From assembly GCA_024305405.1 (NCBI GenBank), contig JAKNDB010000103.1, forward strand, positions 3,162,001-3,226,000: a stretch of 64,000 nucleotides of DNA, written 5' to 3'. Source of the DNA: Dirofilaria immitis (taxonomy: Eukaryota > Nematoda > Chromadorea > Rhabditida > Onchocercidae). Each line of letters opens with the position of its first letter. The stretch's first letter is position 1. This document shows positions 8,535-64,000 of this stretch, piece by piece. The notes below the pieces were generated by a model. The model worked only from the letters and a program-made list of their open reading frames with translations. It did no database searches and was not told where the DNA came from. The translations under genes were made by a program, and so were the position numbers.

Positions 8535-8558
8535 GAAATTGAAATAATTAACCCGATC

Positions 8559-9191: not shown

Positions 9192-9199
9192 TAATTTAA

Positions 9200-10170: not shown

Positions 10171-10171
10171 T

Positions 10172-11520: not shown

Positions 11521-11524
11521 CAAA

Positions 11525-12385
11525 AGCGAGCCATACTTAATGAATGGTAATATTATCATCGAAAAAGGAACCAACAATTTAGCCAACAACATACGAAAAC
11601 AAAGGTCTGAATCCAGAGGGTGAGTTAATTATGAAGGAAGTAAGTGAAAGGGAAGAAACAGAATTAGATAAGTTTGATCCAAAGAATATTAAATATCAAT
11701 ATCTTTTCGACGTGTTGCAGATAGAATTTAAGAAACAATTGACTAAACTGTATCAGAGAAGCTGCCAAAACAGAAACAACTTATTATTATTGATTGAATG
11801 GTTATCGACTGTCAATCCAACACTGGCTGTTAAACTATTGTTGCAAAGAAACGATATAATAGCAAAACGAATTAAAGGAAAACTGTTAATAGCTCCCTGT
11901 AGTTTCAATGCCTCTGAATGGAAAACTGTAGATTTCAAAGCAGGTAGAGTGAGCAAATTCGAAATTGAGAAAATTAATGCAGATTTAGATATATTAGCCC
12001 AAACACTCGGAATAACGAACCCAGTACATGGTCCAACACGAGAGGAATCTTTACGGGAACTAATAGTTGAACAAGGGAAGAATTGGTAAATCAACTAGAA
12101 ATCGAATTCGATGAAACCACTGAATTAATAGAACAAGAATTATCAGAAGTTATGAAACGTTGGAAACTGATCACCTTTAGTATAATTGTTTTCGTAATAT
12201 TAATTATAATAATTGTTATCAAACTAAAATTTGAATTAATTCGATCTCCTTGTCGTTTTTTCTGTATTAGAACCTCAAATCGAAGGGTAGATAATTCTAT
12301 GGAACTTGTACGGGTTCCTACACCCAAAAGAGGGATCAAGAACCACCCAACACCATTCAATACTTTCCCATTGTTCTTTCCTTAA
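11525..12385 (+). pseudogene. Env-like third reading frame remnant of the BEL/Pao element
   Basis: Downstream of pol two segments in different frames (11631-12089 and 12083-12385) encode a Glu/Lys-rich helical region, a Cys-containing stretch, and then a single strong transmembrane helix of about 20 residues (LITFSIIVFVILIIIIVIKL, about 12169-12228) followed by a short basic tail. A membrane-anchored protein between pol and the 3' LTR fits the env-like genes known in some nematode BEL/Pao elements such as Ascaris Tas. The N-terminal part appears lost together with the integrase core. Inference from position and topology; sequence homology to any named glycoprotein was not shown. Confidence 0.5.
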
Positions 12386-40089: not shown

Positions 40090-42416
40090 TTAGTAAATAA
40101 TTCATTTCTAATTTAGAAGAAAAAATTTTCGGATTATCGAATATCAAAATCTAAATTGACAACAATATTTAGCAATAAATTGTACGGTAATTAATTATCC
40201 AATTATTGTTTGCATAATATTGAAATATTTTAATTATGAAAAGTAATCAATTATATATTTTTTATATATTTTATTATCTTCAATAATTTAACACTCTATG
40301 CAAATATATATATATATATTATAATTATCTGACTAAACAAATAATTAATTATTAAAAAAGATTAATACAAGAATATTTTATCAATAACATTATTTGTGAT
40401 TATTTCTTGAAGTAAAAAAAAAAGTTACTATATATATATATCGATCTCGAGATATCTGAGAATTTATTCTATCCCCGCCTCTAATATTTATAATAAGCAT
40501 ATTAAATGGACGAGAAATGAAATTTATCAAATATAAAGCAACAAAACCAAAATAGAAAATGTAGAAGAAACGAAATGTTTGTTATCAAGTTTTCTGATAG
40601 CTTTTATTTATAATTTTGAAAAACAACCTTTTGCGTGGGAGTGAATAGAGAGAATAGAGTAGTTGTGGGAAATGGAAGAATGATAGCTTCCGAGAAATGT
40701 CATATTATTTATTCTCCCGCTATCACCAGCAACGGTAAAAACAGGTTTCAAATGAAATGAGCAAAATACATGTGAATCGGTATTTCATATTCAGCATCAA
40801 GCGTTAAGGAAACGAAGAAGAAAATAGGTGCAGTAAGAGGAGAAGGGCAAGAATTGCTTTAAAGGTAACGCAATATTTAATTTGTCACATCATATATACC
40901 AATTGATACTTCATATCAATCTATCATCTGTTGCTTCTAAATGTTTTACTGAACAAAAAAAGGAAAGTTGATAGCGATTTGAGGGATAATTTAACTATCA
41001 CTGATAAAACTACAACCTAATTGATAATATGGTAGTAAGGAAAATGAATTGAAAAATGAGATGATAAAAATATATGATATCTTGTTGTTTTTACAAAATT
41101 TTTATCTTTTTTCTTAATCATTCGAAATGATAAATACATGATATTATCGATATTATCGATATAAAGAAATTTCTTAATTAAATTAAAAAAATTTTTCTTC
41201 TTCTAATATAATTTTATGTTTAACAAACTTAATAGTTTTCTAAATCTAAAAGCATTTTGCTCATTTATTGCAAATTTTTTTTTTTAGATATATCTGTTCA
41301 TTTTTGTTAAAAAAATAAAATCAATCGATTGTATTTTTAGATTATATTTTTGCAATTCTGCATGATCAAATTACAATTCAAAGATGTTATATCATAAATA
41401 TTCCTAAATATTCATTCTCTGTTAATCAAAACTTCCTAAATTTCAAAGCTTATTTAGAAAATCAAGCAAACGATTTAAAATACCAAAATATTTTTCTTCA
41501 AAAAAGTTTAGACGAAAAATTTTGAATTCATTAATGATCATTAATAATAATAATAAAAAAAAACATTTCATATATAAATTCTATTTTACCTACGAGAATT
41601 ATTATTTTCTTTTTTCTTTTACAAAAATCAATTCTTACTTTTTTTAAAGAAAAAGTTTGTCATATACACAAACAGAGTTTTTTCAAGTAAAAAATTTATC
41701 AAACGTTCGAATGATAATTAATCCTACATCATATCATCTTTTGTTATTAATTAATTTAATTGATTATTTCATATAACTTTGTCGTTTATTTACCATTTAA
41801 CTCTAAAAAATGATACATTGAAAAAGAAGTTACCCAATTCTTAAAAATTAATTACATGAGTTAAATTTTATCAATTATTTATAAGGAAAAAAAAGTAAAA
41901 AAAATATTTGCATCGAAAGTTTGAATCTTTCAATTAGACTCTCGAAATTAATTTTTAAATGAAAAAAGAAAAGAAGCAATACAAAGATTATACAGAACAA
42001 TGAGCAGTAGAAAGATGGTTTACAAAAGTGTAAATTCTGCTGGGAATCAAATCAAATAACAGAAAATTTTTTTTTTGTTTCAGCAATTTCATCATGTATG
42101 AAAATCGATTCAAACTCAAAATTTTTCAAATAAATTCAACTAAAAATATATGCATATATATATTGCTTTTATTTATTTTTTCATGCTTTTACAAAAGCAT
42201 ATTTGATAATTATTGATAAAATTAAATTTTTACCTTTTCATTAAATTAATCAAACAAATCAACTTTTCATAAGTTATATTATTAGTTTGCATATAAAAAT
42301 TTCTTCAACATTAAAGAAAAAATTTTTTAAATAAAATTAATTTGAACAAATTCTTAAACTATTCAAATATGAAAAAGCTTTTGCAAAAATTTCTAAAACA
42401 TTATTAAGCAGCATAG

Positions 42417-42417
42417 G

Positions 42418-42457
<40 letters not shown>
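42417..42457. repeat. (GAT)n microsatellite, about 13 copies
   Basis: Second GAT run in the window, in intergenic DNA, continuing into GATAATGATAATAATG. Confidence 0.9.
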
Positions 42458-44510
42458 AATGATAATAATGCTTTTGTTATTTCCAGGTGTATATGAAATA
42501 ATAATAGCAAGTTTGCTCATGTGATTAAATCAGAAATTTCAATACTTTGCTTCTCGTTTTCTTGTCTTTTTCATTTGCTTCCCTATTTATGAAGGAAATT
42601 GGCATACCACACTATCTTAAAAGGTAACTATAATGATGTATATGTATAATATATATTGGGAAAGAAAAGATAGATAGAGTAAATGCTGATTAAAATTATA
42701 TCAACTCAACCTATCAACTGCTATTTGTTTCTTCTTTCGAAATATTGAAAAAAAAAAAAAAAGGAGGAAAAACCGGTATTTATACGCATTAATTTTCCTA
42801 TCATAATAACCTGTATTAATCATAAGCATTAATATATATATATATATACATATATTATTGCTAATGAAAATCAGTAAAAGCAATTTTGTCTTTCTTTCGT
42901 CGTCGTTGTTATCATCATTTATTAATGTGTAAAATTGTTTTTATCAACATTAAAATACCAAAGAAAAGAAATATTCCAAGAATTGTTTAATTCTCATCAA
43001 CAATTAACATTTTTTTTTCGCACTTCAAAAACAAAAAAAAAAAAAAATAAAAATAATAAAATGTTGGAAAAAGAGAACGAAAATGTTTTGAAAAAAATTT
43101 TTCGAATGAAATGAATGAATGAAATTTTCAATTTGAATAATATATGTATATATTATAAATAAATAAATACATTCAATTGCTTTCGTTTTTTTTTTTTTTT
43201 TTATAACTTTTTTTCAAATTTTTCTTTTTTGCTAAATTATATGTACCTTAATATTAATGTAAATTTTTGAAATTTTATTGATTGATTGATTTATTATTAT
43301 ATTTTTTTTTGGAAAAAATATGAAAATGATAAAATTATTATCAATTTATAGTTTGATAAAAGTTATCATGAATTACAATAAAAATTAATGGAAATAAATG
43401 AATTATATGAAATAGGGAAGTGTCGAAAAGATGCCACTTTTATTGTTGCCATATTGTTTAAGTGGTACCAGATAGAAATCGCTAGCTTCCCTTATCCTGA
43501 AATTTATTTTGAAATAAGCCGTATTTTATAAGACAAACATCATTCAATGAAAAATTTTTATTACAATTATTGAGACTGATCGTTTCCAGTAATTGAAAAA
43601 TAAAACAATTTCGAAATTTCATATTGACAAAAAATGAAAAAAAAGAAACGAAATAAATTCACAGAAAAAAAAGAAACCTAAATTTCCACTATAATTTAAT
43701 TCTGCATAATCTTAAATTTAACATCCATCTGATATATATATATATATATCATAATAAATTATAATTTATTATCAGAAAAAAACGAGCGAAAAACACAGCA
43801 ATTTTTCATTTCAATAAATCCATGCTAGACAAACAAATATATAAACCATTAATTAATGAGTTAAAAAGACTGCAATAAATACAAACATTATCTAGCATAC
43901 TATTGACAGATTTAATCCAATAAAGCAATATCGATCGATATCATACGTCAATATCTTTTGAACTCATTTTGTTGATCATTAAAAAAATCGATAAAAATTT
44001 TTATGCCTAATCTTGATACATCTCAAAGGATAATAATAATAATAATAATAATAATGGGAATAAAAATACATAACACATAATTGAAAAATTTTTAAATTCA
44101 TCAAAACTTTCTGCCTTATTTTTTTTCAGCAAATTCGTAAACAATTCGAAAATTTAAAGAAATTAAACAAATTTTAAGGTTCGCACAAAATTTAAGTAAG
44201 TGAGAAAAGAAACGAAAAAAAAGTGACAAATGTCTTTTGACAATATTTTCCATCACAGTCAAACTGTTCATACAAAACAATAATATATAATTTTTTTTTC
44301 TTTTTTATCTTTTATATATTCTAGCAAGCAAAATAGATAAATTTTTAGTTGATGCCATATAGTAGTAGCATAAATTTATTATGAAAATTTACATAAAGTT
44401 GATTAATTTGGTTAATTTGATTAATTTTGCTAGATGAAAATTGGGATAAACGCAAAAAATATAATTATTTCAATAATTATATTGTAATTTTTTAATAATT
44501 TATAATTTTT

Positions 44511-44547: not shown

Positions 44548-44736
44548 TTTGATAATTTTTTTATCACTAAATAATGATAAAACAATTTATTACCTTTTTA
44601 ATATTACTATAAATCATCTTTTATTGCTTAGAATAGCTATTAATAATAAATATATATATATATAATGTATGAGTATGTATGTATATATATGATGTATATG
44701 TGTACGTATGTATGTGTGTGTGTTTGTATGTATGCA

Positions 44737-44763
44737 TGTGTGTGTGTGTGTGTGTGTGTGTGT
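44737..44763. repeat. (TG)n microsatellite
   Basis: About 13 TG units, preceded by imperfect TATG/TGTG runs from 44665. Downstream of the TEP gene. Confidence 0.9.
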
Positions 44764-44906
44764 TTATTCATTTAAACATGCTGAAATATTTGTATTATCA
44801 ATAATTAAATGTTATTAATATTAGAATAAAATGGTTATTTCAATGATTGAGTAAATAACAAAATTTCGTCCAAGCATAATAAGGCACGAGATTTCTCACA
44901 GAAAGG

Positions 44907-45101
44907 TTACAGCCTAACAATTGAGACAAATAAGGCAAACACGATCATAACATGCAATTTGATAGGGATAATAATTGATGCAGCTTCGGCACGCATTGAT
45001 AGAATACCTGCACTCATTTCGTTAAATTCAGCAGCTGGCCAACAATCAGGACATGCATCCGGTAATGATCTCATCTGCTTGATCGTATAGCTTGTCTTCA
45101 C
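44907..45101 (-). other. Last TEP exon with hydrophobic C-terminal tail (possible GPI signal)
   Basis: After [18 protein letters not shown], the chain ends in [24 protein letters not shown] and a stop. A small-residue site (SAG), a spacer and a terminal hydrophobic segment of about 20 residues fit a GPI-anchor signal. A C-terminal membrane helix is the alternative. Confidence 0.5.
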
Positions 45102-48100
45102 CTGAAGCACAATTCTTTGAAGTATTATAAATTAGAATACAAAGTTTAAACATCATTTCAACATTCATGGATAATGGATAAATTTTAAACTTAACCATAA
45201 ATTAATTAATTAAATTAACAAATCAAGTTTAATTCATAATTAATCTTTCACAAATAAATTTTTGCAGCAAGTCATGGAGTGATTTTTTTCATCAAACGTT
45301 TGAAATACATATGATTACATCTAATTATTGGCAATATGTTAACATAACTTTTGGAAAATAAATATTAAATAATGATTGTAAAGGTGTTATTAATTATAAT
45401 TGCATCACAAGCAATACCTGTTGTTCGGGATCGTAGTAATCGAAAAGAACAACTTGTGCTGGTTTTTGTTCTGATATTTGATAGACCATATCACTATACA
45501 GTGATAGACATACCGGTGTTGAACCAATCTATAATATGCAATATATTTTGTATGATAAATATGGAAAATTCTCTTTCATTCTAATTATCAATAAATAATA
45601 TTACTTAATTATTTTCGATTTAATAAAATTTTTAGGAAGATATCAATTATTTCATACAGGATTGAAATATAAATTCATTCTAGTATCCTCTTTATCCAAT
45701 TCCGCTCTTTGTAAATCGCCAATATCCATAAGATTACCAAGTTGATCCCCATCAAATCGAAATCCAGATAAGGCATCTATTTCAGCAACAGCCATATTAG
45801 AACGTGAATTTGGTTTGGTATAACTGAAGGAAAAAATATCGTAATCAAATTAATAGATAATCATTTAGACATACACGGTAATATAAAAGTTATCAACATT
45901 GAGCACTAAACGTCAGAAGAGAGAAACATGAGATAGTATATTATATAAATGAGTTACTTTGAGATCATGTATAAAATTATCAATAATGTTGGAGAAAAGA
46001 AACGTACTTGCAACATAGGTCAAGCTGTAAGCGATTACCACTGTGTAATTCACGAACTTCCTTCGTACAATAAAACGGTAGGTCATCTCTCATTGTAGTA
46101 CGGTGATATGAATACTGTAGTTGTGCAAGAACAATACCATTACCTCGAGCTTCCATTTCTAATTTTTCATCCAAATTTGACAACTATAATGAAGATTTTC
46201 TTTTTCATTCATTATTACTATTTTGAAAGGAATAGAATACATATGTGGTATTTAATTAAATGAACCGATTTGAAATAAAAAATTATGAAGATAAAAACAA
46301 TTCTTAGATAAACTACTAAAAGTAATATTTATACTTCAAAAAAAATTAATTAAGTATCAGAAAAGAGTAGTGAAAATTTTAATAGAAAAAGTGACAAGAG
46401 ATTGAAAACATTATAAGCTTATGTTGTAGGCGTAGGAAATTTCTACTGTTGCTACCGCCACCGTAATTACAATTACAAGTTAATCCTACGATTACTGTTG
46501 TTGCTTTTGTTATCGTACTATTACCGATTACTTTTAAGCAAAAAAGGAAAGAATATCGCATCGATTTTGCGATTAATGAATGATAAGAATTTTTGATTTT
46601 ATATGGTTAATCCACCACCATTATCATCTTCCTTAATAAATTACATCATTATAGATATTCCAAATTCAAATGTTGTGAAGATATACAATGAAAATAACAG
46701 TGACCTCATAACTTTGCAGTACCATCGAATTGTCAGCTGTTACTTCGAAATTTTGCTTATCAGCACCATTTGTTATCATAATGCTAACATTAAGCTGAGG
46801 AGAGTAAATTTTGGCCGCATAAGCAGCCAATGCTTGTAATGCCATCACAGTATCCTGAAATTTGCCACAATAAAATTTCCCATTGCCGTATTTTTCGGAA
46901 ATACGTATATTTATTTATATATGTAAACAATAATTCATCATCTAACCTGCGTACTACTGAATCCTCCAAATGCATTTCGTTGTGATGTAAGCCACCTCAC
47001 CAGAGGAAGTGCTTTTGCAGTATCATCTCTTATCATATAAGTAAGTAAAACATAAGCTGTCATCTCGACATCAACTGGCCTTGGTTGATAAAAATAATGT
47101 TGTGCATCTTTCGGCTTTTCCTGATCAACTTTCATAGACCAGTGAATACCGTCTAAAAATTTAAATTCAAATTTTATCTTTATAAATATAAATACAGCTA
47201 CCAATATGGAATATTTTGAATAGTAGGAAATACGGAATCAATTCTTCATTTCCTTTTTTAGGTCACGTAATTAACATACTAACACGACAAATACTATAAT
47301 TGAAAATATAATTTGAATTATATTCCTTAAGATTTTAGCCTTTTCGTCAATTATAATAATATATAATGAAGAAGAAAAATAATAAAACTAACCAGCTGTT
47401 TCTTTTTATGAGATTCAAGAATTCCCAGTGCTTCTTCTTTTTAGAGCTATTAGCTAAATGGAATACATAGGTAACGATTGCTAATGCATATGGATCATCC
47501 TTAATTTCCTGAAGATGTTGCTCCAAATAGTATTGTGCTTTTTCGTCAGAAACCTAAAATATCATATACTATGTTATAGATTCTTTTAAATTTACCATTT
47601 TATTAGATAATGAAGGCCATAACATCACTGATAAATCAAAATTGTTAATATTGCAAAAATCCAGTAGATTTCAGGAAGGAGAAGATCTGATTTTCAAATT
47701 TATAACTGCTAAGATTGATTTAAATATAATTATAATTGCTACGATACAATTACTGTAGATGTTTAAATTACATCAAAGAATGAAAAATACTGACCCCATT
47801 TTCGAGAAGTGCAGCATATACATAAGCAGTTAATGGTACACCACCTTCAGCTGCACCACCTTGCATCGCTTTATGATGAACTTCGCCTCGCTCAGCGAAT
47901 GCACCATTTTCCTGCAACCAGAAAAATTTGCTAAAATGGACTTCTAATTAGTATTCCTTCATCATTGCATTAGTACCATATAGGAAGAAAGAATCGATAG
48001 TAATAAATGAGCAATTCAACAATTAGCAATTTGTTTTAAGCAATTAGAAACCTGTTGTTGTTGAGCGTTCAAGAATGCAATGGACTTCTGAAGGATTTGT

Positions 48101-51100
48101 TCATCAACGAAGATGAATTGCTGCGCTTGTTTAAATGATCGGACAACAAATGCTGTAAGCCAAGTTGATCCATGTTTATCACTTTGACCAAATGCTGAGA
48201 ACGAATTATCATTCCTCCTATACATGAATTAATTCTTTTTATGTCACTTTCAGATAAAAAGTCAATTTTAGGTTTATGAAAAGTTTTCAAACTATGTGGT
48301 AGTTTTAATATCAAATGAAATCAGTGTTAAAATGGAAATTTCAGTGCATCCATAATCAAATAATTTTTACTACATAAATAACCTCGGTACAAACATATCA
48401 CAAGCAATAAATTATTTCTTCAAATATAATACTTCCAAACCAAATAAATCTTTTTTCATTTGTCAAGCTTATAATCAAGTAAATGATCTAAAATTAACGA
48501 TAATTGAAAAAATAAATAACTTTTCAATTATCAGTCATCATAACATATCACATGAAGTATTGAAACAACGTCAATATTTAGTTCATTGACATTATTTGGC
48601 TGTAATATTATTGTCAAGGTATTCTTACAAATTTGTAATCAGATTCTTATCTTCAAAGTTAGATGTTGTTGAAATATAAACACGATGTAAATACATTAGG
48701 AATCCTTTCACTCTTATCGGTAACGCGACGAGCGATGCTTCTGAATTCAGCTCCAAATTTCATCAAACCCTATAATTTCCAACCACAATAACATCCGGAA
48801 AACATCCTCATTTTCAGCCTTTAGTACATGCGAAATCCCAACTATGCCGAGCTTCCAATTTTGGCGCCAGAGATAAATGAAGAAAATATAAGTTGTTGTC
48901 GCTTTAAAAGACTTCATTCAATAATAATATCATTCCCTTTTTATTGTCAGTTACTCTTGATCATCATCTGGAGACTCATAGTAGCAAAATCGCTCTAGAG
49001 AAAATCCTTATGTTGATAAATAATGCTATATTATCAATCAAAGCAAATGAAGAAGCACACAAACGTGTGGAAAAATGAAATCTATCTTTAACAGTGCTTC
49101 AATGAATGTAAAATAATTTCTCTTAACGACCAACAATTCAATGAAAAAATTCTCAACAGTAACGAGCAGAATCTGTTGCTTTCATAATAGGAATATCATT
49201 CGGTTAGTAACAAAGCCATGGACTCGAAAGAAATTGATACACAGGGTTTATTATGAGGTTCAAGAAAAAGAAATTCTTGATTTTTGCCAAATCTTGAATT
49301 GCATTAATTAAGAGTATTATTATACCTCGCTTGAAATTATTAGCAATACTTATCAAGGTAAAAGTACTTACTTTACAGTTAGAGAATGTATTGATAATTT
49401 CATGATCACCGGACTATTACTAAGGAAAAGTGAAATTTTTATTTTGTTATATTGTGAACATAGCCCAGATGATGTAATAAAAAGGATATTCACCTACGAA
49501 ACTTAAAACTACTGATTTTGATGAAGGGGATCATTGGCAATAATGAAAATTCAGACTTAAAGAATAATCAGAAAATAAAGAAGGAGGAAAAACAATCACT
49601 AGTTACCTTAACTGCTCAAATTCCTATCGAAAAAATAAAATGGAAATTGTTTTGGAAAATGATTAATTATACTAAAACTATTGCGTGGATGCTCAAAAGC
49701 TATGATAATCTTCCTCTTACTGTTTTATAAAATTAACAATAATAAGAGCAAGATTAACGTGACTACAACCATTATCAATCAAGAAAGATTGATTAACAAT
49801 CAAGAAAGATGAAGATTATAAACTAGCTCAATGGGTGCTTAATTGGCGCACATAAAGGGTGACTGAAGAAAAAATAGGTAAATGGAATTTATATTATAAT
49901 AAAAAGGAAAAATTATGCAGGCCAAAAAGTCAATTAGATACTCAGAACTGGATGAGGATCGTAAACATATAATTTATTTTCCAAAGCTAATTTTATAACT
50001 GAACTTCTTACATAATATGAAGATATCTATCGGCAGAATCGAAATTAAACGAGTTATAAATTCATGGCTTGCAAAACCATGCAAACCATTACCTTCCCAA
50101 TTAACTTTCTCTCTTCTAATATTTCGTTAATCTTATCAGTTTATAATAATTATGATCAAGATGAATTTATTCCTTATAAACCAAATACTTTAAAAAAAAA
50201 GAATTATTAAGCATTGGTCAAATATTCTTGAAAAAATTTGGATACTTTGAATATTTAAACTAGCCCTGGAAAAAGAACAAGAATCTATTGCTTCAAGATT
50301 GAGAAGCGCCACTAGACAATGAGTTCAAGCAAAAACACACAGTAAATTGAATTCGATAATGACAAGCTCGTTTTTAACAGCAAGGACTTTTTAATTACGA
50401 TTGTGGTAAAAATCAAAATAATTTTACCAAAAAACTTCTCCTTATGATGTAATAGCGAAAAGAATTGAAAGAAAAGTTCAAAAATAAAAATATCAAAATG
50501 CATTTGATTAAATTTAAAGAATTAATAAGCAAATATGAAATCGAATCAATTAATGCAGGATTGGAAAGAGTAGCTCAATATTAAAAAATAATTCAACAAC
50601 TAATCAGTAAAAATAAATTTGAGAAGAGATAACTTAACAAAAACATGTTTTCCGTAGAATAATTGGAAAATGAATTTTGACAAAGCTACTGAAATAATAG
50701 AATTATCAGAAAATTTTACGAAAATATTGTAAATTGATCACTTTTGGTATGAATATTTTTGTGTCGTCAATAATAGTGAAATTTGATTTTTTTATAATTT
50801 ATCCACTATATTTTGAATCTTCAAAGAGGAAAAGTTGTCGGGTAACCTGAAGTAAATGTGTGATCCGTACACATTGACATTCAGATTTAAGAAGTTGCTT
50901 TTCATAATCTATGGTTGATGCTAAATTTAATTTTTGTCAGAACACTTTCGATTCGGCCAGAACATCATCGATTGCCATCGCTTACAAATACTTTTCTTAT
51001 CGCCATTACATGTTCTTTGCTTCCTCACATATATATATCATCAACAAATGTAGCTAATGTTGGGAAAATGGATTTTCTATGTCCCGATCGTTTATCTCTT

Positions 51101-54100
51101 TTTTCTCTATAACATGGTATATACCACTTGCTTATCCATGTATGTCTAAATAGTCTTATTTCTTTATCTTATACTTCAGATGATTACTCTTTGCGTATAT
51201 CCTGCCCCACAAAGGGCATGCAGATAGTATAAAAGGGTTTTTTTGGGTTTACTCAGCAAGATATTAGTGGTGAATGGTCGGTCTACAGTCAAGTTCCCGA
51301 AATCTCAGAAATGAGATTCGCCTACGAAGGAAGCTTGAAAAGCCATTAGCGGTTTTCCTAAATAGTGGAACAATTTCTTCCTATTATTAGTATTAGCGAC
51401 TTATTGCTCTCGCACACTAAAGAAAAAAAAGCTTTTGTTTTTTCACGGCAAAATTAATTGTAGCTAAAGAAATTATAAGATATTCCCATGGCAGTCGTAG
51501 AAATTCTTTCAGAAAAAGAAATGCCCATAAACAATGCTAAAGTACGGAATTTCTTTTATTATGCTCCTGAATTTATTTCTCCCGGACTTCTGATCTTCAT
51601 TAGTCAGGAATGTTGGAATACTGAATATTTCATAATATAAATTATCTTGATATGAGAAATTTCTTCTCCTGAATAGTTGACGACTAATAACAGTATTAGA
51701 GCGACACCTCATTGCAGTTCGTAGTCTAAATACACTAGAAGATTTCGTTTTCCTTTTGTTGAATTGAAATTTTAAAACTTCATTTCCAAAATGGGCTTTC
51801 TATTAATTACTTAATAATTGGTAAAGCATATTATTTAAGAATTGAATTGACAAAAATAGTAAAGCATATTATTTAAGAATTAAATTGACAAAAAATATAA
51901 CATTTTATTTATTTTTTTGTTAATTATATTAAAAAGTAAGAGAAGAAATTTAAAAAAGAGGACAGCGAAAAAGAAAAAGATTGTTATTACTAGTATTGTC
52001 AGTTGACAGATGCTTCATTTAAATTTACATTTGATTTTTAATCTTCATGAGGATCCAGGTTTAACCTTCATAGGATCGAAGATAATTCCTATCTGATCTT
52101 TCTAACATTGAAAGCATCATTAGCATCTTAATCATAAAGATTGTTGTCAACCTCTACCAATGTCTAACTCGATAATTTTGAAATTCTATGTCTTCAGTTT
52201 CATACATACGGAAGTAAAAATCAACTGAAAACATTTTTATCATTAATCCTTACTTTATTATAATTAGTAATGCAAAATTACCGATAAGTAAGTTCTCGTT
52301 GATATCCAGATTCCATGTACTTCTTTGCTTTATTTTCAATTTGAGTTCCAGCTCGTTTAGTGACTTTTAAATACCGAAGGATAGCGATGTTAGGCACAAA
52401 ATTGATCATATTCTGTTCACCACAGCCATAAGGCATACGTATGAGGGAATCTATATTAGCGAGAGCTGAACCTAATAAATCACCTGAAATAAAGTAAATC
52501 ATCTGAAAAATTACTCCATAACAAAAATAACTAGCATTACTGATAACATGAGAGAGAAGATTAAATAAAAAGAAATGATATGGAAATTCTTCTCTAATCT
52601 TCTTCAGATTATAAAAATTTTAATGATTAAAAAAATTAACCATAAATGTATTCAAAAATTTCTATCATGTAAAAACCGTATGTGAAAAATAAGAGACATA
52701 CCTATAACATCGAATCGCGCCTTTCTGGATCCTTCTACAGCGTCCATTGGAAACTGCATATCTATTTGCTTTTTAATTTCGGTATTATTATTCATCTGTG
52801 TCAAATCAACCATTACAAGAGTATTTCTGTCTATTCGATATCCTTCTGGCTACAAATCATATCTGGCTATCATTTCCGGTTATCTGTTCCATTGTTAATC
52901 AGAGATAAACTAAAAAAATACTGTACATACCTCAACTCGTAGCACTTGTTCTACTGCATCACCTGCTTTCGCAGATTGCGCTGTCACAGAAAGCATCACA
53001 TTACCGATTTTCGTTGGTACAATCGGAAAGTAAACTGCTTTCGATACACCACCGCCAGGTACCGATATCAACCTTACATTATGGTTCTTGCTCTTCGTGT
53101 TTTTACTGTAACAAAGCAAAATACTGATAGATTGATTAATTTTGAGTAATATTAATGAATAGAATACTTAACATACTTAACCAGAAATGAATATTGACAT
53201 TCCAATATACATTATGTGAAAAAATATTTATTAGTAATCCACCTGATAAATTTCTTCGTAGTACCATCTTTTGTAGAAAATCATAACCAATATCATCGCC
53301 ATCTTTCAATGTTACTGTCACCTGAAATTATTTGTCTATTTATTTTTTTATGTTAAATGAAGTTGTTAAGCATCAAAAAGCTATCAACATTACTGTTCCT
53401 GTGATGATTAATATAAATCCAATATCCAATAAAAGTATATAACAAAAGATGATAAATACTGATCAGAAAAGTCACAAAGTGTAACTAAAATGACTGACGT
53501 ATAAATGAAGAAATATAATTATAATTAAGATGAATGATACATGAATGAAAAAATAAAACCAACATCTTGTTCACTATCCATATAATTGAATACTAATATT
53601 TGCAAGGCGAATTTTTCTCCACGTTTCACCGAATATGGTAAGTTGATGCGAATGAAAAATGGACGAAATACAGTAAGCTAAAATTGAACAAATACATACA
53701 GTATCCATTAAAAGTTTACAGATGATATATTAAAATAAATTAACATCAATATCAACAAACACAATGTGCCAGAAATTTTCAGAAGGAAATATCAATATAT
53801 TTTTTCAATGAATTAATATTAATTAATGAGAATCAAACCAGTATCAATCATGCAATCCTTTAAGACTGCTTCAAAAGAGAATGCAATATGAATTAACATT
53901 AATTAATTAATTAATCTGATACTAATATAACTCCTCGAAATTTTCTCGGAAAAATATATTAATATGAAAATGAAGGATGAAATTGGTTCTATCTCGTTCA
54001 ACAATTATGAAATTATTCTGCAATCAATCAAGAAAGATTTTTAGAACGACAATTTATATGGGAAAAAAGCTCTAATTATTGTAATATATAATAATATCAT

Positions 54101-57100
54101 ACCTTTGAAGTTGATGGAGCAACCCTGAGGCCGGTCTCATCGTTGACAGCAAAAGCGCTCGCAACCCAGGATGTTATCGTATCCGGTACAACCGCTTCGA
54201 AGATAGCTTCTCCGGTGCCTCTAAAATGCCAGATATTTAAACATCTATATATTGTCTTTAATTTTCATTTCCTCAATCTCGGAATAACAGTTTATAAGCA
54301 CATGATCTCCACATTTGAAAATCTCCATATTTAAATTTCTAGAACAATGAAATTTTTCGAGAAATTTTTCAACAATTGAATTTGAAAAGATTCAAATTGA
54401 ATATTAGAAATTCTCTTACAGTTACTGAAATTTAATAACCTCAGAAAAATTGAAAAAATTACTCTTTTCGTTTGAAAAATTTATTTTTCAAAAATAGTTT
54501 TTATGTATGTATGTGTAAAATGACTTTACTTTGGTTATTTCATTGAGAAGAGCTTTTTGTCCATTCATGCTAGCTATTTTGAAAATGATTTCAACATTAA
54601 AGTATCAGCATGTTTTTCTCAACCCTAAATCAATTTTTTGTCCTTTTCTCAGTCTATTTACAAAAATTTCTCCTCATAAAAATGCCATAAAATTTGAAAT
54701 TTCAAAATCATTGAAAAATCATTGAAATGTAGCCCTTAATTATTTCTATTTTAACTTTAAGTCTATATTGCATTGCATTTCTTTAATTTATTTCTTTAAG
54801 GCTCTTACGACTTATATTTGAAGTAATAATTAGGAATGAAATGTATGTAATATTTGCATATTTTGCTTAATTAAAATGAAGAAATGCTAATATATTTCTC
54901 TCGTTGGAACTGAATTCCAAGAAGATATTATTTCGAGAATTTCTCGCTCTTCTGTTTACATCATATTTCAAATATATGATAAACTAGTGAACGAGAAACT
55001 GAAATTTACTTTACTATGGCAAATTTACTTTACTATGGTATTGCTAACAGAAAAACTCATTTTTTCGAGAAATTATTTGTTTTCAAAAAATTTCAAAAAT
55101 TTAAAAAACAAATGCATTAAGTAGAGCATATATTAAGAACAAAAATTTATCTGTGCTGCTAATAAATTATAAAGATACATTTAGAAATTCAAGAATTTAT
55201 CTATTCAATTGAAACCATTGGAGAAAAAAACTGTTCGGAAAGAGTAAAATAATAATGCTTATGGCATAACATAGATTGAAATGATTTAAAAGAGTTAGAA
55301 GTTTGCGAACTCTCGTAAAGCATTTAAAGGATTACATGTGACGTATTATCTGATCGTTGAAAAAATAACTACACACAGCAGCGCATGAAGATGATTGACG
55401 TGTGACACTATGATATGTTAAGGTGATGTGAACGAATCATGCCATCGGGATCTTTTGAGTTGATAATAGATATGATAAAGAGGAAAAAAAGATTAATCAA
55501 TTTTTCTATAAAATATCATCATTGAAATGACAAAAAAGAAACGTAGCCTTTCCTGATAATGACTAATTACTCAAGTGAGTTTGACGAAAATTTTGCATGG
55601 GTCATTAGAACTGAGCAGATAGTATAACGTTACTTTCATTTTTTTACGTCAATAAATTATTGCAGCTAAAATTAAGTGAATAATATGACATAATATAAAT
55701 AAGAGAAAATAAAGAAATTAAATACGAGCCATTAAGCTATTCATCAATTAAAGCACTTATTTACATTAATAATGACATACGTTAATCAATCATGGAGATA
55801 TGAAGGCAAATGATGAGATAATACGAATAGAGAAAAAAAATGTCCAATTATTAATTTATCTTCGGATTAAGGCCAATAATGCTTCCAATCAAATTCTAGT
55901 AGGAATACATCAGATTTTTTTAAATTAATTAATCAAATTTATTGATATCGATTGTAGGAGAAAATAGATCGTAAGAACAGAATGATGTATAAATAATACC
56001 GAGTTCGCATATTGCTCCAAACCCATGTTTCCGGAAACAATTTCCGTACTTTAGGTAAATTATATAAGCCAGAATTTTCCTCCGTTATTTCTCGATCCAT
56101 ACCTATTTTAATCATAGAACGCGCAGAACCGAATGCGATTGCAGGAAATCGTCGCCAAGTTTTGAAAGTCACTAAAATGGAAAAAGCCAATCAGGCGAGT
56201 TTGGAAAAAATCAAACTTCAGCGGAAACAAAGGACCAGAGTTTTACACCAACTTGCAGTGAAAAGATGAAGTAAGCAGGCCAAGGAAGGATTCTATGATG
56301 AAATATACGGAAGAAATGAAAGAATAAAATGTTAGCATAAAGTGTCATGAAATAGTTATTATCACAAATCAGTGATAATACTATCAGATGATCATTCTAT
56401 ATGATTAATGCTTTCTGAAGTAATGTTTTTCATCGACAGCAACATCATGCAGTGTGCCAATGAAGAAAAGTGATCATTCTTTTACAGTACTGATAAAAAC
56501 TGCAAAAAGGCCAATGATAACATTTAATGATGATAAATGATATCCGTTCGCAATTAGCCGAAGGAGATACAATAACGATCCATGGCTTGTGTATTTTAAA
56601 AATATAATGAAAATGTTTGAGAAATTGATAAATTTGATAATATCATAACTTACTAAATGTATTGTTATGATCTTGCAAAATTGATATAATAAAGTTGTAT
56701 CGACAAATGACTTAGTTTTGTTCATAAATAAATTATTAATTAATTGAAAAATTTATGTTGCTAAGTTTTCTAATCCTATATTTTTCGGAATTACCTGAAA
56801 TATATTTTCAAAAAATCAAATGTTATTATTCCTGTCAAATCACTCCGTTATGCTTGCTAGTGATTGAATAAGCATAAATAAAAACATCATCATGCTTTTG
56901 ATAACAATGCGGTAAAATGCAAAAAATTGATAACACGCAAACGGTGAAATTAAAATGCATAATGGCATGCATCGAGCATGATGCATGACTATTTTATTCT
57001 ACCGTAAGAGTATAACTACTGCATTAATTGCTTAAAATTATTCACACAATATATATTGCAGGTGAAAGGAACAATGTCAATGATGAAAATTAAAGAAATT

Positions 57101-60100
57101 TCAATTAATTTATTTTCTTGCTACAATAAGGACAACTTAAGTTAGTGATATTAGAAATTCTGAAATCAATAGAAATATGGAAAAGGAATCTAACTGCAAA
57201 AATTTGTTCGCTCAATGGTACTATCAGTGATGATTGATAATTTTTGGAAATGAAAGCCGGTTAGAGATATGGGGAAGGAAAAAAATAGGAAAATATTTTC
57301 TAGAAGGTTCTCTAATCTATTTTCAGACCTGAAATTATTAGATTCATCTGATAATCTCAGATATGAAGATAATTTATAATTATTTATAATAATATTCATC
57401 AGTAATTATTTATAGATGATGTCGGAAAATTGAAATATTTTATAATATAGATAGATATATCCATATGACCAAATTATTTTTGCATGACTCATCATCGTCT
57501 AACATAAAGGAATGTTACGATGTCTAATGTAACGAATCATTTATCTAATTCTCCTCTTTGTTACCTTATAACAATGGTTACATGTAATATCTGGAATGTT
57601 GAAATATATACTAATTTAGTAATTATCTGGAATGTTATAAAAATGTTATAACGATCGAAGCTTGATGGAATGTTGTAACGATCGAAGCTTTGATATATTT
57701 GAGTATCGCTCATCTCTCATGCTTTATTAGATCGGAGAGTTCTAGCAATAAATATAAAATATTTGTTTTCAACATTGATCTAGATCTCAATCGTAGTATT
57801 GTTATATATATATATTAAAAAAAAAAATACGAAAGGTTTGAATAATGTCTGGACATTGCCTTAAGCTGGAGAAAAGTTTGATCAAAGGATCTAAGGAACT
57901 GAAGGTAATTGGAATATTATTATATATTCGTTATATTTACCTTGTATTATGAGCGATACATTTATTAAAGTTATAAAAAAGTGAAATCTAATAAAATATG
58001 ATTTTTTCTCATAAATCTAACAAACAAATGAGCAGTATGAAAAATGAACTTTGCAATAGATAAGCATAATTAATCGGAGATTTAATAGAATTTCTATTCC
58101 CTAATGATAATTCGAAATGAATATTTTTATATCAAAATTTATTCCATTGTCGTGAAGGAAGCAGTCTTTTCAATCAATTTAAAATAAAACACTACTATCC
58201 ATCTCAGTTACCATTCTTCTCAAAACAATTAGATGGATGAAATTAGTCAAAGTTAAGTAAATAAATGTTGTAAGTTTATTCAGATATTTCAAAACGGTTT
58301 TCTCAAATTAATTTCTTACTCTTTTTAAGGAGTATTGCGTACTAAATTAATTATCAATATAATGGTTATGGTAAGTTAATGATGTAATGAAGTTATAATT
58401 TATCGTAAAAATAATGAAATTAAGTTTTGTTCACATCATTCTATCAGATCAAAGACTAAACTAAAAATTAAACTAAAAATATTAAAAAAAAGTCTGCACT
58501 AATTTTAATGTATATCATTTCAATCAACATTCCTAAGTTGATAAGGGACTGCATTAATTCTAATATCATTTTAACTAACACTTCCAAATTGATGAAACTA
58601 GAAGATAAAATTGTATATAATCATTCTTACTCTGCGGCAAAAGCAGCGTTCCATATCCAGGATTCCGGAAAATTCTTCCTTATTCGTGTAATTTCAGAAC
58701 CTTTCGTAGGTAATGCAGAATCCATATCGCTTTCTAATACTACATTAGGATGGAAATTACTGCCCAATGGTTGTGCTATTACTGGTTGCGCAAGTCCTGA
58801 AATTATTAGCTCCTTCCGCTCCTGATGAATTAATATTGCAATTCTGATATTATTGCCCCAAGCGAAAAATTATCACATATTTTTACTCATGCTGGGAATC
58901 AATAAAAGAAATCTTGAATTTATCTTCCAATGTTGTTAGTGATATTGGCAAAGGCGATAGTGATGATGTGATGATATTGCTAATGGCGGTACTAATAAAT
59001 AAATGATATCAATGATGATTTTGGTAGTTTGATAATATATTACTGATAAGAAGTGATATTACTGGCAATTATACTATGCTGACAATAATATGATAATTAT
59101 AATGCCAATAATACCATATACATTGACATTATCAAGTGATAATAGTACTAATCAATGATATAATAAATTAGCGTGAAAATTAATTAGCTTTTAGTTAGTA
59201 TAATAAAACTTGTAAATGGACAAACGTAAACGAACATTTCCTGTTAATTAGTAATAAAAAATACAATAAGATAAGCAATGTATAATTAATTCTCATACTA
59301 ATTAATTGATGCATTTTTCTTTTAATCATTGCAATCTTAATAATGAACAAATACCAATACAAATTGAGAATTTACGATTGTGAAATAATTTATTAAATAT
59401 TAAATTTATATACTACTTTCTCAATGTTTTATGCATAGACGTTCAGTAAACAACTCGTTTTATCTTATGATAAAAGTATCGCTAATTTAATCTTATCGCA
59501 ATAATCTTGATAACTGATAGGCAATCGAAAAATAGATATATCAATCAATTTTAGATCTTTTGAGAAAAATGATGAGCAAATACCGATTAAAGTATTACAA
59601 CAGCATTACACTAAAAGCGATAAGGATTTTTACAATTCTTGTATCCACAGGATCAGTTATCGAGAATTTCTTATAATTAATTACTTAGGGAATCGCTTAT
59701 TTATCATTATTTTCTGAAGATACGAAGTTAATTAATGATTTATTTTTAAGCATTAAGCATTCCCGAATGATGGTACAATTGGTGCATCCATGAAATATTG
59801 AAGAATTTTCCAAAAACAGGTCATGCATTAAATTATCCAATATCGAAAGCTCAGGCTTAGGTTTTAAGCATAAACAGGAGGAAAATATTGATTTTTTGGA
59901 AATACTGATTGATCAACAAATTTACTTCTATTGATAATCCAATATCATATCGCATTTGATCATTCATTGAATCCTCCATATAATTAATCTATTAAGTAAG
60001 TAGATCTTGGAAACTTAAGGAACTCATTAAGAGAATATTTTTCATTAGTCAAAGAGAAAAATAACTTTCCATTATCATATCATCCATTCTCAATTAGCAA

Positions 60101-63100
60101 AAATATTTACATATTTTAACCTGGGTTAGCTATAAATCAAGCATATGTTATTGTCGGTAATTTTCCCGTAGTTGTTTAACAAAAATAGCATGGCAATAAA
60201 CAGAGCAACTGTAACAGCATGCATTTTTAATTTTATCTTCATTTTTATCAATTGAAGAACTTTTAGTATTATTTCTGAAGATATTGTTTATTATAATTAA
60301 TAGTTTTTACGATGATAGTATAAAATTTGGTGAATTCTAAAAAATTATGAAATGCATAAATTTAAGATAGCACATAATAACCCTTCGATAATTAAGCATG
60401 AAGTTTTTTCAGCATGAAGTTTTTCATCTTATCTCTTTTTTCTCCCCAAACCATGCTTTAGAATAACATATAATGTATTTTTATGAAAAAATGGCCATAA
60501 GGCTTTCACAAAAGCACTAACTTGCAATATCAGGTCCACGAAATAGAAGCGCATCAGTTAGAACAACCAAACCTGAGTTCTGGAAATTGATGATTCTTGC
60601 GCTAATATAACAAAGAAATCATTCTAATCTTTAAAATATTATAAATCGTTTTTGTTCTATTCATAAAAACTTTTGTAAAATGGAATAACAAAAGGAGCAA
60701 ATAGAACATAACGACTAAGATGCTAACGTCAAAAATTGTTGCCGCATCTCTACCACCAATTCCCCACCAGGAAACCAAATGGATCGTTTTCGACGTTTAG
60801 CATCTGCTTCCCATGATCGAAATCCACGTCCGACACCTGTTGTATCATACTGTTCCACATCTTGTTCTACCTAAAATAATCACATTTTCTATCGTGTAAT
60901 CTTAAAGAGGAAACCTAATGACGTTTGAAAAAAGTTTATTCGAGAAAGAACCATTACGTTAAGATTGGCTAGCATTTAATTTTAAATTTTTTGATTAGAA
61001 TTAGGAGAATGTAAGCACATTGATTTGAAATGTGGATATCAAATTTTAGCTTAAATAATATTATAAATTTCATAATGGATTCTATTGTCCGGATTCTTAT
61101 GATAGTTAGAATTTATAAATGAAACAGTTTGGAATTTGACGCTAATGAATTTATTCCAGGCTTACTAAATCTTTCGTGATATCATTCCCAGATTTCAGAA
61201 GTAAGACACTTTGATCAACTGCAAGTAAAGCACAATACGAATCCGGATCTGCTTTTACAGTATATTTTATTGAATCGCCCGGTTCTGCTGTAGTATGATC
61301 AGCCGTAAGTGAAACCTGAAGAAGATATTGTAATTTTATTTTTAAATTTTTCATCTTCCATTATGCTTAATTAATTTCTTAAACTTCTTTAAAGTAATCT
61401 TTAATTTTTAAATTAATAATTTTCACTGAATCTTTCGATAAAACTCAATGAAGATTATTAATTAGAAGCCAAGGATTAATTTAAAAGATTAGCTTAAAAA
61501 AATTAAGATTATTTATTAAACTGTAAAATAACTAACATTGTTTCGAAACAATCCATCCACTCGAAAATCGGTTGCATCGACTAGAATTTCTTGATTCGAT
61601 GCTCGAACTGAATACACGACTAACATCGCTTTTGGTGCCATTTGCGATGTCGCTGTGAATGTAATCGTTGCTAAATCACCGTTAACTGACATATTTTGAA
61701 CAAATATTACCGATCCACGTGCTATTACCTGAAATATATTAAGATGACTTCATTTTAGGTTATCGACGATATTCATGATATTTGATATTCTAAGAGATTA
61801 TCATAACAATTAATCCTATATGTAACAAGTCAAACAGAGCAAATTCGAAAATTTAAGCACAGAGATTAATAAATTTAACAACTTACAAAATTTATGATAA
61901 ATTCTTTATATTATCACTCACATTATAACTTAGAAATCTTGCGCTATTATGATTCATAATCTAAAAATCTTGCACACTATCACCCGCATCATCATTTGAA
62001 AATCCTCGCATTATTAGTCGCATTATCGCTTAAAATATCTACTTGTATTATCACTCACACTATCACATGAAAACCTTACGTACTGTCAATTGGACCTTTT
62101 GCTAATTATTACCAGCACTATCATCTGGAAATCCCGCGCATTATCATTAGTATTACATTTGAAAATCTTGCATACTACCATTAACATTATCACTTGTTTG
62201 CATTTCTAATATAGCATCAACTAACCTGATAAGTGATTATAGATAAAGGTTCAGTAGCCTTCACAGTGAATGATAATGTTTTTCCCGTATCAACAACACC
62301 AGCATGATCGGCAATTAATTGCAAGAAATTATTCGATGGACTTTTGCCAGCTTCGACATAAAGAATTGAATAAATGCTCGCATCTTTGAAATCATCTTTT
62401 CCGGAACGATCATAATGCGCCTACAGTAATTGATGATACATATTGTTGAATAAAGCAAGAATTAAGCATGACAATCTTTTAATTTAATTTGCATAAATAT
62501 ATATATTACGATAAATAGATAATCATTAATTTGAAAATTTGCCTCGAACTTTTCAGGGAGATAGCAGAAGAAATGATAAAATGAACACAAAAATAAAAAT
62601 TGTTGCAAAAAATGAGGACAGAAAATAAGTTTAGCTTGAATTGATAATCAAATATAAGGCTAAAATAAGCAGAAGATAATAGCTCTAATTTTTAGGTTAA
62701 CTATTCATAATAATTGAAGAAGGATGTAATTGCTGATGAAGTTTTTAAACATTTATCATTTCTAGTAAAATTAAAATTAGATGTCTTTTTTCACGTAATG
62801 AATCGAAAAATTGGAAAAAGAAACTTATTAATTAAGTTGAAATAGGAGAACAAATAACTTCAACTCGTGCATCCGTGCAATTATTTGGTGGTTGTAGTGT
62901 AATTACCGCACTTCCGTGAGCATCTAAATCCACAATTTTAACTTCTTTCTCTTCATGTTGTGTTATCGGATCAGTCGTATATAAATAGCTATAGAATGTT
63001 GTTACCTGAATCGTTTATTTATTAATATTTTCTAAAAATAGATGATAAACGATGACATCGAAGTAAAAATATCTTCTGTTGCAAATCATCGAAATGTCGA

Positions 63101-64000
63101 AATCATAATTATGCTTAAAATAGATTGCATTAAATGCATAAATTTAGTAATATAATTATATTATTTTTACACGTTTAGATATGGTAGTAATATAATTATG
63201 TTACCTGTACACGTTTAGGTATGGTAGCTTTAACTGGTGTATTATCCATTTGTTTCAAAGTAATGACAATATTATATCCAAGGCCAGGTTTGAATGTTTC
63301 ACCTTGCTTTTCCATATCCAATTTAACATCATGCCGATAAGCGATAATCTTAAATGTTGAATTTATACATTAAAATTTTTTTATTATCATTTTTAAATTT
63401 CAGAAGAGTTAGAATTATAAAAAGTTTTATTTTCTAAGAATCATAATTTGTTATTACCTGGGATTGTTACAAGGATTAACCCATTTTGTAAGAATCATAA
63501 CAAAGATTATCTATCATAAACTAAACGATAAGCTTATTTTATATGAATCATTAAAAAATTACTTATTATAAATTATAAACATAAGCCTATTTTGTAAGAA
63601 TCATAATAAAGATTACCTGTGCAGTAGCATTTCGTTTAATATCTGTCAAATCTTCGGTAACTGTTACCGTAATTTTCACCGAACTACCACCATATCCTGT
63701 CACCAATTTATGCTTCTTCAATTCTTCATTAGTGAAGACAATAATTGCTTCGCCCATATTATTCAAAGTTACTATTCGTTCAATAACATTCTCTTGTTCT
63801 GTCTATAAATATTCTGCGAAAATTACAGTAATAAATTTCATAAATTAATGAATAAAATTAAATTCAAACCTTCTGAATGGTGCCATCGTCTGCAACAACT
63901 AATGGTACCGCAAAATGATTCCACGGTAATTCTAAAGTTACTTTTGCTTTACCGGATACTCCTTTTCCATACGTATACCTGAAACGATTTGACGCATAAA
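44907..64000 (-). CDS. tep-1: Thioester-containing protein (TEP/C3/alpha-2-macroglobulin family), 5' end outside window
   Basis: At least twenty minus-strand exons from about 63979 to the stop at 44907-44909. In coding order they give macroglobulin (MG) domains ([18 protein letters not shown], about 63.9 kb, to [14 protein letters not shown], 61.2 kb), a dibasic [14 protein letters not shown], two alternative bait-position exons, [15 protein letters not shown] (54.2 kb), CUB region, the thioester domain with GCGEQ (52.4 kb), GSTWLTAFV (48.2 kb) and [11 protein letters not shown] with a His at the catalytic position (47.9 kb), and the receptor-binding MG8 domain ([18 protein letters not shown], 45.8 kb). 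The C-terminus ends in a hydrophobic tail that could be a GPI signal, as in CD109. TEPs are secreted or surface proteins that bind covalently to nearby targets in innate defence. One exon (60728-60870) is one base short. The symbol is by analogy with the C. elegans family member. Confidence 0.93.
48052..48217 (-). other. TEP exon of the thioester domain (GSTWLTAFV)
   Basis: Encodes [19 protein letters not shown], a conserved helix pair of the TED. Its 5' boundary closes a 4.06-kb intron reaching 52281, the longest in the part of the gene seen. Confidence 0.85.
48700..51372 (+). mobile_element. Old BEL/Pao remnant inside a TEP intron, antisense to the gene
   Basis: Stretches match the 6464-12919 element in the same order and orientation (+). 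The RT region is at about 48800 (cf. 9770). A block GAAATC(T/C)ATCTT at 49077 matches 9917. GAAGAAAAAATAGGTAAATGGAA at about 49866 matches the pre-integrase segment at 11103. CAAAACCAT... at 50070 matches 11395. The env-like region at 50480-50780 matches 11955-12230, and a diverged LTR follows. All frames are destroyed. The 5' half of the element is absent. It lies wholly within the intron between TEP exons 52282-52483 and 48052-48217. Confidence 0.75.
50836..51372 (+). repeat. Diverged LTR of the intronic BEL/Pao remnant
   Basis: Begins TGTCGGGTAACCTGA right after a purine-rich AAAGAGGAAAAG (possible polypurine tract) and probably ends AGTGGAACA. TATAAAAGGG at about 51229 could be its TATA box. 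Apart from the first bases it is unlike the LTR at 6464, so it belongs to a different subfamily. The right end is uncertain. Confidence 0.5.
52282..52483 (-). other. TEP exon with the thioester motif GCGEQ
   Basis: Encodes [17 protein letters not shown] with GCGEQ at 52413-52427. In this family the Cys and Gln form the internal thioester. Intact and in phase with both neighbours. Confidence 0.95.
54103..54222 (-). other. Common TEP exon downstream of the alternative exons
   Basis: Acceptor CATTTTAG, then A|GGCACCGGAGAAG; needs a two-base remainder from the preceding exon. Both alternative exons provide it (CG+A = Arg or GA+A = Glu). Encodes [18 protein letters not shown], a block conserved right after the bait region in TEPs. 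Confidence 0.85.
56000..56171 (-). other. Alternative TEP exon A (bait-region position)
   Basis: 172 nt, acceptor CCATTTTAG, donor GTATTA. It starts after a one-base remainder and ends with a two-base remainder. Variable first part ([18 protein letters not shown]..., Lys/Arg-rich), then the conserved [11 protein letters not shown]. Its closest relative in the window is exon B; both fit the same flanking exons. Confidence 0.8.
58631..58796 (-). other. Alternative TEP exon B (bait-region position)
   Basis: 166 nt, acceptor TAATTTCAG, donor GTAAGA, the same phases as exon A. Variable first part ([17 protein letters not shown]..., few basic residues), then [18 protein letters not shown]. If both A and B were included, the frame would not continue (remainders 2 then 1 required), so they should be mutually exclusive. 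Confidence 0.8.
60522..60579 (-). other. Common TEP exon upstream of the alternative exons
   Basis: 58 nt after [26 protein letters not shown], ending with a one-base remainder (A) before GTTAGT. This fits exon A (ATG, Met) and exon B (AGA, Arg) alike. Confidence 0.75.
60728..60870 (-). other. TEP exon with a furin-type KRRKR site, one base short
   Basis: Encodes [20 protein letters not shown] and then [14 protein letters not shown]. The exon is 143 nt while both neighbours need a multiple of three. One more G in the G4 run (C4 on the + strand, 60762-60765) gives [16 protein letters not shown] and joins [10 protein letters not shown]. The basic cluster could be a proprotein convertase site, as at the C3 beta/alpha junction. 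Confidence 0.75.
63147..63226 (-). repeat. 40-bp tandem duplication across a TEP exon-intron boundary
   Basis: AGTAATATAATTAT.. to ..ATATGGT at 63147-63186 is repeated at 63187-63226 with a few changes. The copy nearer the exon holds the working splice donor (CAG|GTAACA on the minus strand). In the intronic copy the matching bases read AAAATAATA, so the donor GT is lost. Confidence 0.85.

What the first reader, a model, noticed from the sequence alone, without database searches (positions are those of the whole stretch)
54103..60579. Two candidate mutually exclusive exons at the TEP bait-region position
Seen: exons A (56000-56171) and B (58631-58796) have the same entry and exit phases, different N-terminal parts and the same conserved ending (V/I)RKxFPE(T/S)W(V/I)W. 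The upstream exon (60522-60579) and downstream exon (54103-54222) fit either one but not both in series. Known: insect Tep2-type genes swap this segment by alternative splicing, changing the protease-bait loop. Inference: this nematode makes at least two TEP forms with different bait chemistry (basic in A, nearly neutral in B), which may widen protease or target range.
Basis: partly seen in the sequence, partly recalled or inferred. Interest (0 to 1): 0.8.

Follow-up and report, generated by a model that had tools for sequence, protein, structure and literature searches.

The report
Swappable bait exons in worm TEP
A filarial worm's complement-like TEP gene carries two alternative versions of the segment that proteases cut, so it can probably make two forms of the protein; the same trick is known in flies, snails and scallops, and nematode gene models hint that it is common in worms too.

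Summary
U+A+D and U+B+D are open; U+B+A+D and U+D hit stops. No third copy was found in 83.5 kb; all 29 TEP matches scored in the genome lie in this one gene.

Relatives carry both types: protein models of Loa loa and Brugia malayi have B, Acanthocheilonema viteae has A, and a Wuchereria bancrofti model joins part of B to A. So both are real exons, in conserved order.

Best explanation: mutually exclusive bait exons of a CD109/TEP-1-type gene, the same kind as Drosophila Tep2 and snail BgTEP2. No transcript data were available. Strict exclusion is not fully frame-enforced: two internal donors in B can join A in frame. The charge contrast is real but small. Elsewhere the gene departs from relatives' frame at four places, probably assembly errors. 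New member of a known kind; what is fresh is how often nematode gene models show the same sign.

The parts
60522..60579 (-). Constant upstream exon U ([19 protein letters not shown]), last constant exon before the bait
   Evidence: same stretch in Loa, Brugia, Acanthocheilonema and Wuchereria models
58631..58796 (-). Alternative bait exon B (166 nt); variable part net -1, ending [11 protein letters not shown]
   Evidence: B-type bait in Loa loa P0001 and Brugia malayi P0002
56000..56171 (-). Alternative bait exon A (172 nt); variable part net +3, ending [11 protein letters not shown]
   Evidence: A-type bait in Acanthocheilonema viteae P0003 and Wuchereria bancrofti P0004
54103..54220 (-). Constant downstream exon D ([31 protein letters not shown]...)
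58701..58761 (-). Two internal GT sites in B (exon would end at 58761 or 58701) that would join A in frame, giving partial B + A
   Evidence: W. bancrofti P0004 has a protein of this form
60728..60870 (-). Constant exon with furin-type site RRKRS upstream of the bait; its reading frame changes inside the exon relative to relatives (donor read by eye)
52282..52490 (-). Thioester exon ([15 protein letters not shown]); upstream border approximate
44907..45101 (-). Last coding stretch, ending in a hydrophobic tail (possible GPI signal; no predictor run)
44907..64000 (-). Part of the TEP gene inside the window; its 5' end lies beyond the window (first homologous codon about 66374 on the extended scale)

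Best explanation
A and B are tandem-duplicated, mutually exclusive exons of what is probably the worm's only TEP gene, a CD109/TEP-1-type thioester protein. Each supplies the variable stretch of the bait loop plus the conserved re-entry strand (V/I)RKxFPE(T/S)WxW. Shown: exon anatomy, phases, homology, both types in other filarial genera, one locus. Inferred: the splicing machinery joins U to B or to A; transcripts with both or neither whole exon shift frame and would be removed by nonsense-mediated decay; the two proteins share the other domains, including the GCGEQ thioester, and differ in which proteases can cut the bait and so trigger the thioester.
For: Phases and open frames. Both exons found by a profile from other species, no third copy. 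Relatives: B in Loa and Brugia, A in Acanthocheilonema, partial B then A in Wuchereria, i.e. the same order (A). The variable parts keep 24 and 27 of 41 residues (A) and 25 and 23 of 38 (B), so both diverge about equally, against 86-88% identity to the same four species in the exons downstream of the bait: neither looks like a relic. A and B donors are weak beside the gene's other donors (1 and 3 of 17 score lower), as is common for regulated exons (general knowledge). The three introns around them are 1725, 2459 and 1779 nt, while 16 of the 17 other introns measured there are at most 885 nt. Steinernema hermaphroditum has two models of one gene identical for 729 residues before and 307 after this stretch.
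Against: No RNA evidence for either junction in this species. The relatives' proteins are predictions. A database search with the Brugia B bait returned only Brugia, and with the A bait only Acanthocheilonema and Wuchereria. Internal in-frame donors in B weaken the 'one only' rule. No docking/selector pairing was found. The gene departs from relatives' frame in three exons and lacks an in-frame GT-AG join at one further border, so this copy is mis-assembled or damaged.
Confidence: 0.75

Rival explanations
1. The exons are alternative but not strictly exclusive: besides B-only and A-only there is a long form in which a shortened B (about 12 or 32 residues) is followed by A, through an internal donor of B.
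For: W. bancrofti P0004 reads ...RFAQPMVAYPLGSNFQSNIMLKSDVNHA-VHFKSWRRFPAVAFG.... In the window 2 of 5 internal GT sites of B are in phase with A and score 4.4 and 3.5 against 4.0 for B's own donor.
Against: P0004 may be a gene-predictor artefact forced by two in-series exons. Only 1 of the 4 filarial proteins that include the bait has it. Scores come from a 17-site matrix.
Confidence: 0.12
2. Only one exon is used in this worm; the other is a relic of the duplication.
For: No transcript data; only 1 of 17 other donors of the gene scores below A's.
Against: Both are open over their length with GT-AG borders, and have close counterparts in other filarial genera with similar divergence.
Confidence: 0.06
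3. The gene in this assembly is a pseudogene, so the exon choice no longer matters here.
For: Four departures from relatives' frame: inside the furin-site exon, inside the exon near 53268-53321, inside the exon 47395-47553, and at the border between the exons near 64477 and 64394, where no in-frame GT-AG join was found.
Against: 22 other borders outside the bait join in frame with GT-AG (17, 5), and downstream exons are 86-88% identical to four relatives. The furin-site exon and the exon near 53268 are intact in all four filarial models; the 47395-47553 exon in three of four, Loa's model lacking the stretch. Small assembly errors are the simpler reading, but no raw reads were seen.
Confidence: 0.08

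Closest known systems
Biomphalaria glabrata BgTEP2, 12 mutually exclusive exons in the bait-like region (PMC7016707, passages read)
   Same: Tandem exons at the bait position, variable in length and sequence, with an extremely conserved C-terminal part
   Different: 12 exons over 30 kb with transcript proof; here two exons, no transcript data, nematode
Drosophila melanogaster Tep2, five isoforms from exon 5 (PMC5489563 and PMC7016707, passages read)
   Same: Alternative exons swap the bait-like hypervariable region
   Different: Insect TEP; more isoforms; here the best solved match of the relatives is CD109
Chlamys farreri CfTEP, six mutually exclusive exons (as cited in PMC7016707, passage read)
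   Same: Mutually exclusive exons
   Different: Mollusc; isoform use by tissue and challenge was reported there, not tested here
Caenorhabditis elegans tep-1 / ZK337.1 (PMC12633222, abstract and two passages read)
   Same: P0025 matches the draft over 100% of the query at 53% identity; several splice forms reported
   Different: The passages read describe splice forms with and without a C-terminal GPI signal; a term search of the main text found no 'bait'. Function shown is glial/ciliary
Steinernema hermaphroditum QR680_007497 models P0015 and P0030
   Same: Same gene name, identical 729 residues before and 307 after, differing in the bait stretch
   Different: Annotation only; other bait sequences

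Membership tests
Alpha-2-macroglobulin/TEP superfamily | GCGEQ thioester motif | tested here: met
   Window exon near 52282-52490 reads [12 protein letters not shown]
Alpha-2-macroglobulin/TEP superfamily | A2M domain after the bait and receptor-binding domain | tested here: met
   PF00207 over cut-off for both joins; PF07677 over cut-off in the same gene
CD109-like TEP | CD109 is the nearest solved structure | tested here: met
   8s3o is the top hit for relatives P0003 (5.5e-206) and P0002 (4.8e-199). Tested on relatives; for the short window joins CD109 is top with A and alpha-2-macroglobulin with B
CD109-like TEP | GPI anchor | tested here: inconclusive
   Last exon ends in a hydrophobic tail; no predictor or assay
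Tandem mutually exclusive bait exons (Tep2/BgTEP2 kind) | Two or more homologous exons, same phases, between two constant exons | tested here: met
Tandem mutually exclusive bait exons (Tep2/BgTEP2 kind) | Both or none of the whole exons breaks the frame | tested here: met
   but partial B + A stays in frame
Tandem mutually exclusive bait exons (Tep2/BgTEP2 kind) | Exactly one exon per transcript | not testable with these tools
   No RNA data held
Dscam-like exclusive exons controlled by RNA structure | Docking sequence pairing with selector sequences | tested here: inconclusive
   Three layouts, 40 shuffles each: 35, 35 and 4 shuffles reached the observed score; one genome only, little power

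The most novel reading that the evidence does not exclude
Filarial relatives carry a furin-type site (RRKR) about 85 residues before the bait ending (115 in the Wuchereria model, which holds both bait parts), and the window has RRKRS in the same exon. A cut in the chosen bait exon would then be the second cut and could free or loosen a peptide of some 40-80 residues whose sequence is partly set by splicing, as C3 frees an anaphylatoxin. The two filarial bait exons would encode two alternative activation peptides, conserved across genera, not just two protease menus.
Probability: 0.08. Interest if true: 0.75.

Novelty: new member of a known kind. Interest (0 to 1): 0.4.

Why it matters
This worm appears to have one TEP gene. 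If bait choice is spliced, that single gene gains more than one specificity. The sign in other nematode models (10 of 65 examined with two or more bait endings; several models cut at the bait) suggests that many nematode TEP models are wrong or truncated exactly there and that bait diversity in the phylum has been overlooked. It makes a simple question testable: does bait choice change with life stage or tissue?

Tried and rejected
Third bait exon: a loose pattern in six frames over 83.5 kb (it also hit one chance site at 81006) and a profile search (best 25 rows seen) gave only A and B. A donor near 60754 that would join the furin-site exon to U in another frame (listed) was used in the draft query and then dropped, because relatives read WWG(I/V)GG(R/K)DAATIFDNSGLV there. 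Docking/selector RNA pairing: 35 and 35 of 40 shuffles reached the observed score for two layouts, 4 of 40 for the third; shared words flanking A and B were not above shuffles. Counterparts of A or B outside filariae: B resembles a Toxocara canis bait (score 51, 0 of 200 shuffles); for A a few models reach p 0.01 or less with scores of 33-37, which I do not find convincing among 138 segments (its segments overlap so most endings count twice, and pieces under 25 aa were dropped). My first motif tally, also, double-counted and was replaced. Brugia GPI-proteome paper PMC6742230: a term search of its text found no macroglobulin, CD109 or thioester. CD109 review PMC11842317: one passage, naming ZK337.1 only as a homolog. 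Ten literature searches showed, by the listed titles and abstract openings, no paper on alternative bait exons in nematodes; several lists were capped (20 of 195, 20 of 34, 20 of 567, 10 of 11) and only open-licence PMC papers are held. Structure prediction was not attempted: the relatives are longer than the limit for a single protein, and spliced window proteins fall outside its stated rule. dN/dS was not possible: I had no DNA of other filarial species.

Full report
What is there. The window is G000:C63:3162001-3226000 of an 86.7 Mb, 65-contig assembly. A TEP gene runs on the minus strand from beyond the window's right edge (first homologous codon about 66374 on the extended scale) to about 44907. 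All 29 matches scored for a filarial TEP across the whole genome fall inside this one gene, so it is probably the only TEP; that search scores only its best candidates. Downstream exons are 90.7% identical to an Onchocerca ochengi protein (459 of 506 positions) and 86-88% to Loa, Brugia, Acanthocheilonema and Wuchereria proteins (matches under 75 columns only), so the worm is a filarial nematode nearest Onchocerca among those compared. I did not name the species.

The exons. U, B, A and D lie in that order in the transcript. Their coordinates, splice sites and phases match the finding except that D starts at 54220. Insertion of A or B alone keeps the frame; both or none does not. A profile of the bait ending from other species' proteins finds A and B far above everything else in 83.5 kb: E 4.8e-10 and 9.8e-9, next 0.63. 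A loose pattern search finds no third copy.

Where they sit in the protein. Both joins score over the Pfam A2M cut-off, beginning in the shared ending. The nearest solved relatives of the short joins are CD109 (for A) and alpha-2-macroglobulin (for B), with Anopheles TEP1 further down. For the whole relatives P0003 (A type) and P0002 (B type), human CD109 8s3o is the best match. Its alignment stops at residue 654 or 655 and resumes at 747 or 744, a few residues before the shared ending. The unaligned gap of about 90 residues holds the furin-site segment, U and the variable part of the bait exon; the exons swap its last 40 or so residues.

Relatives. Protein models: Loa loa and Brugia malayi, B type; Acanthocheilonema viteae, A type; Wuchereria bancrofti, the first part of B followed by A. 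A region-limited search with the A bait found only A. viteae and W. bancrofti; with the Brugia B bait it found only Brugia, so the Loa and Wuchereria B stretches rest on reading the proteins. The database is clustered at 90%, so isoforms of one gene that differ only here are hidden. The variable parts keep 24 and 27 of 41 residues (A) and 25 and 23 of 38 (B) between this worm and two relatives of each type; the partial W. bancrofti B was not counted. That is faster than the rest of the gene but far from random, and alike for the two exons. Net charges: A +3 (this worm), +5, +1; B -1 (this worm), 0, 0.

Beyond filariae. Of 65 protein models examined (P0001-P0066 without one insect; the top of 2339 hits, of which 120 were listed; four carry no species name), 47 have one bait ending, 10 have two to four, and 8 have none. 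Two of the ten count a degenerate ending. Models with several endings in series are best read as predictors stringing alternative exons together, and models that begin or end at the bait (Onchocerca, Anisakis, Toxocara) as broken by such a cluster; both are inference. Two Steinernema models of one gene are identical before and after this stretch. B-like sequence is seen in Toxocara canis. So alternative bait exons look common in nematodes, and the filarial pair is one instance.

How it works. Most likely the spliceosome chooses B or A between U and D, and frame rules discard most mistakes. Weak donors on A and B and long introns around them fit regulated choice, but I found no RNA pairing element. 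Strictness is not guaranteed: two internal donors in B join A in frame. The protein consequence, different cleavable loops in front of the same thioester machine, follows from the known A2M/TEP mechanism and is inferred. What nematode TEPs do is open: in C. elegans TEP-1 acts on glia and cilia (PMC12633222, abstract), so 'wider protease or target range' is one option among several.

Against. No RNA; predicted proteins only. This gene departs from relatives' frame at four places: inside the furin-site exon (60728-60870), inside the exon near 53268-53321, inside the exon 47395-47553, and at the border near 64477/64394. 22 other borders outside the bait join in frame (17, 5). I take the departures for assembly error but cannot show it. 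A and B themselves are intact. The splice-score matrix rests on 17 sites.

Novelty. Alternative bait-region exons are reported for Drosophila Tep2, BgTEP2, BgA2M, BgCD109, CfTEP and a shrimp A2M (PMC7016707, passages) and a tick A2M (title in the reference list of PMC2685406). None of my ten literature searches listed a nematode case by title or abstract opening. It is a new member of a known kind.

Noticed in passing
60728-60870, 53268-53321, 47395-47553 and the border near 64477/64394 (extended scale), all (-): Four places where the TEP gene departs from the reading frame of its filarial relatives. Assembly errors or damage; intact versions exist in relatives (the 47395-47553 stretch in three of four models).
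   Followed up: partly
P0034, P0036, P0037, P0039, P0044, P0045, P0051: Several nematode TEP models begin or end close to the bait, so public N- and C-terminal halves may belong to one gene.
   Followed up: partly
48218-52281 (-): A 4064-nt intron right after the thioester exon, far longer than the other non-bait introns measured; no second copy of any exon showed in it.
   Followed up: partly
44907-45101 (-): Hydrophobic C-terminal tail that would fit a GPI signal, as reported for one C. elegans TEP-1 splice form.
   Followed up: no
8001-12000: GC 35.4% and AT skew +0.19, the highest of the 16 blocks of 4000 bases on both measures.
   Followed up: no
42404-42529 and 44614-44775: Simple repeats (trinucleotide run; TG/CA-rich run) beyond the 3' end of the gene.
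   Followed up: no
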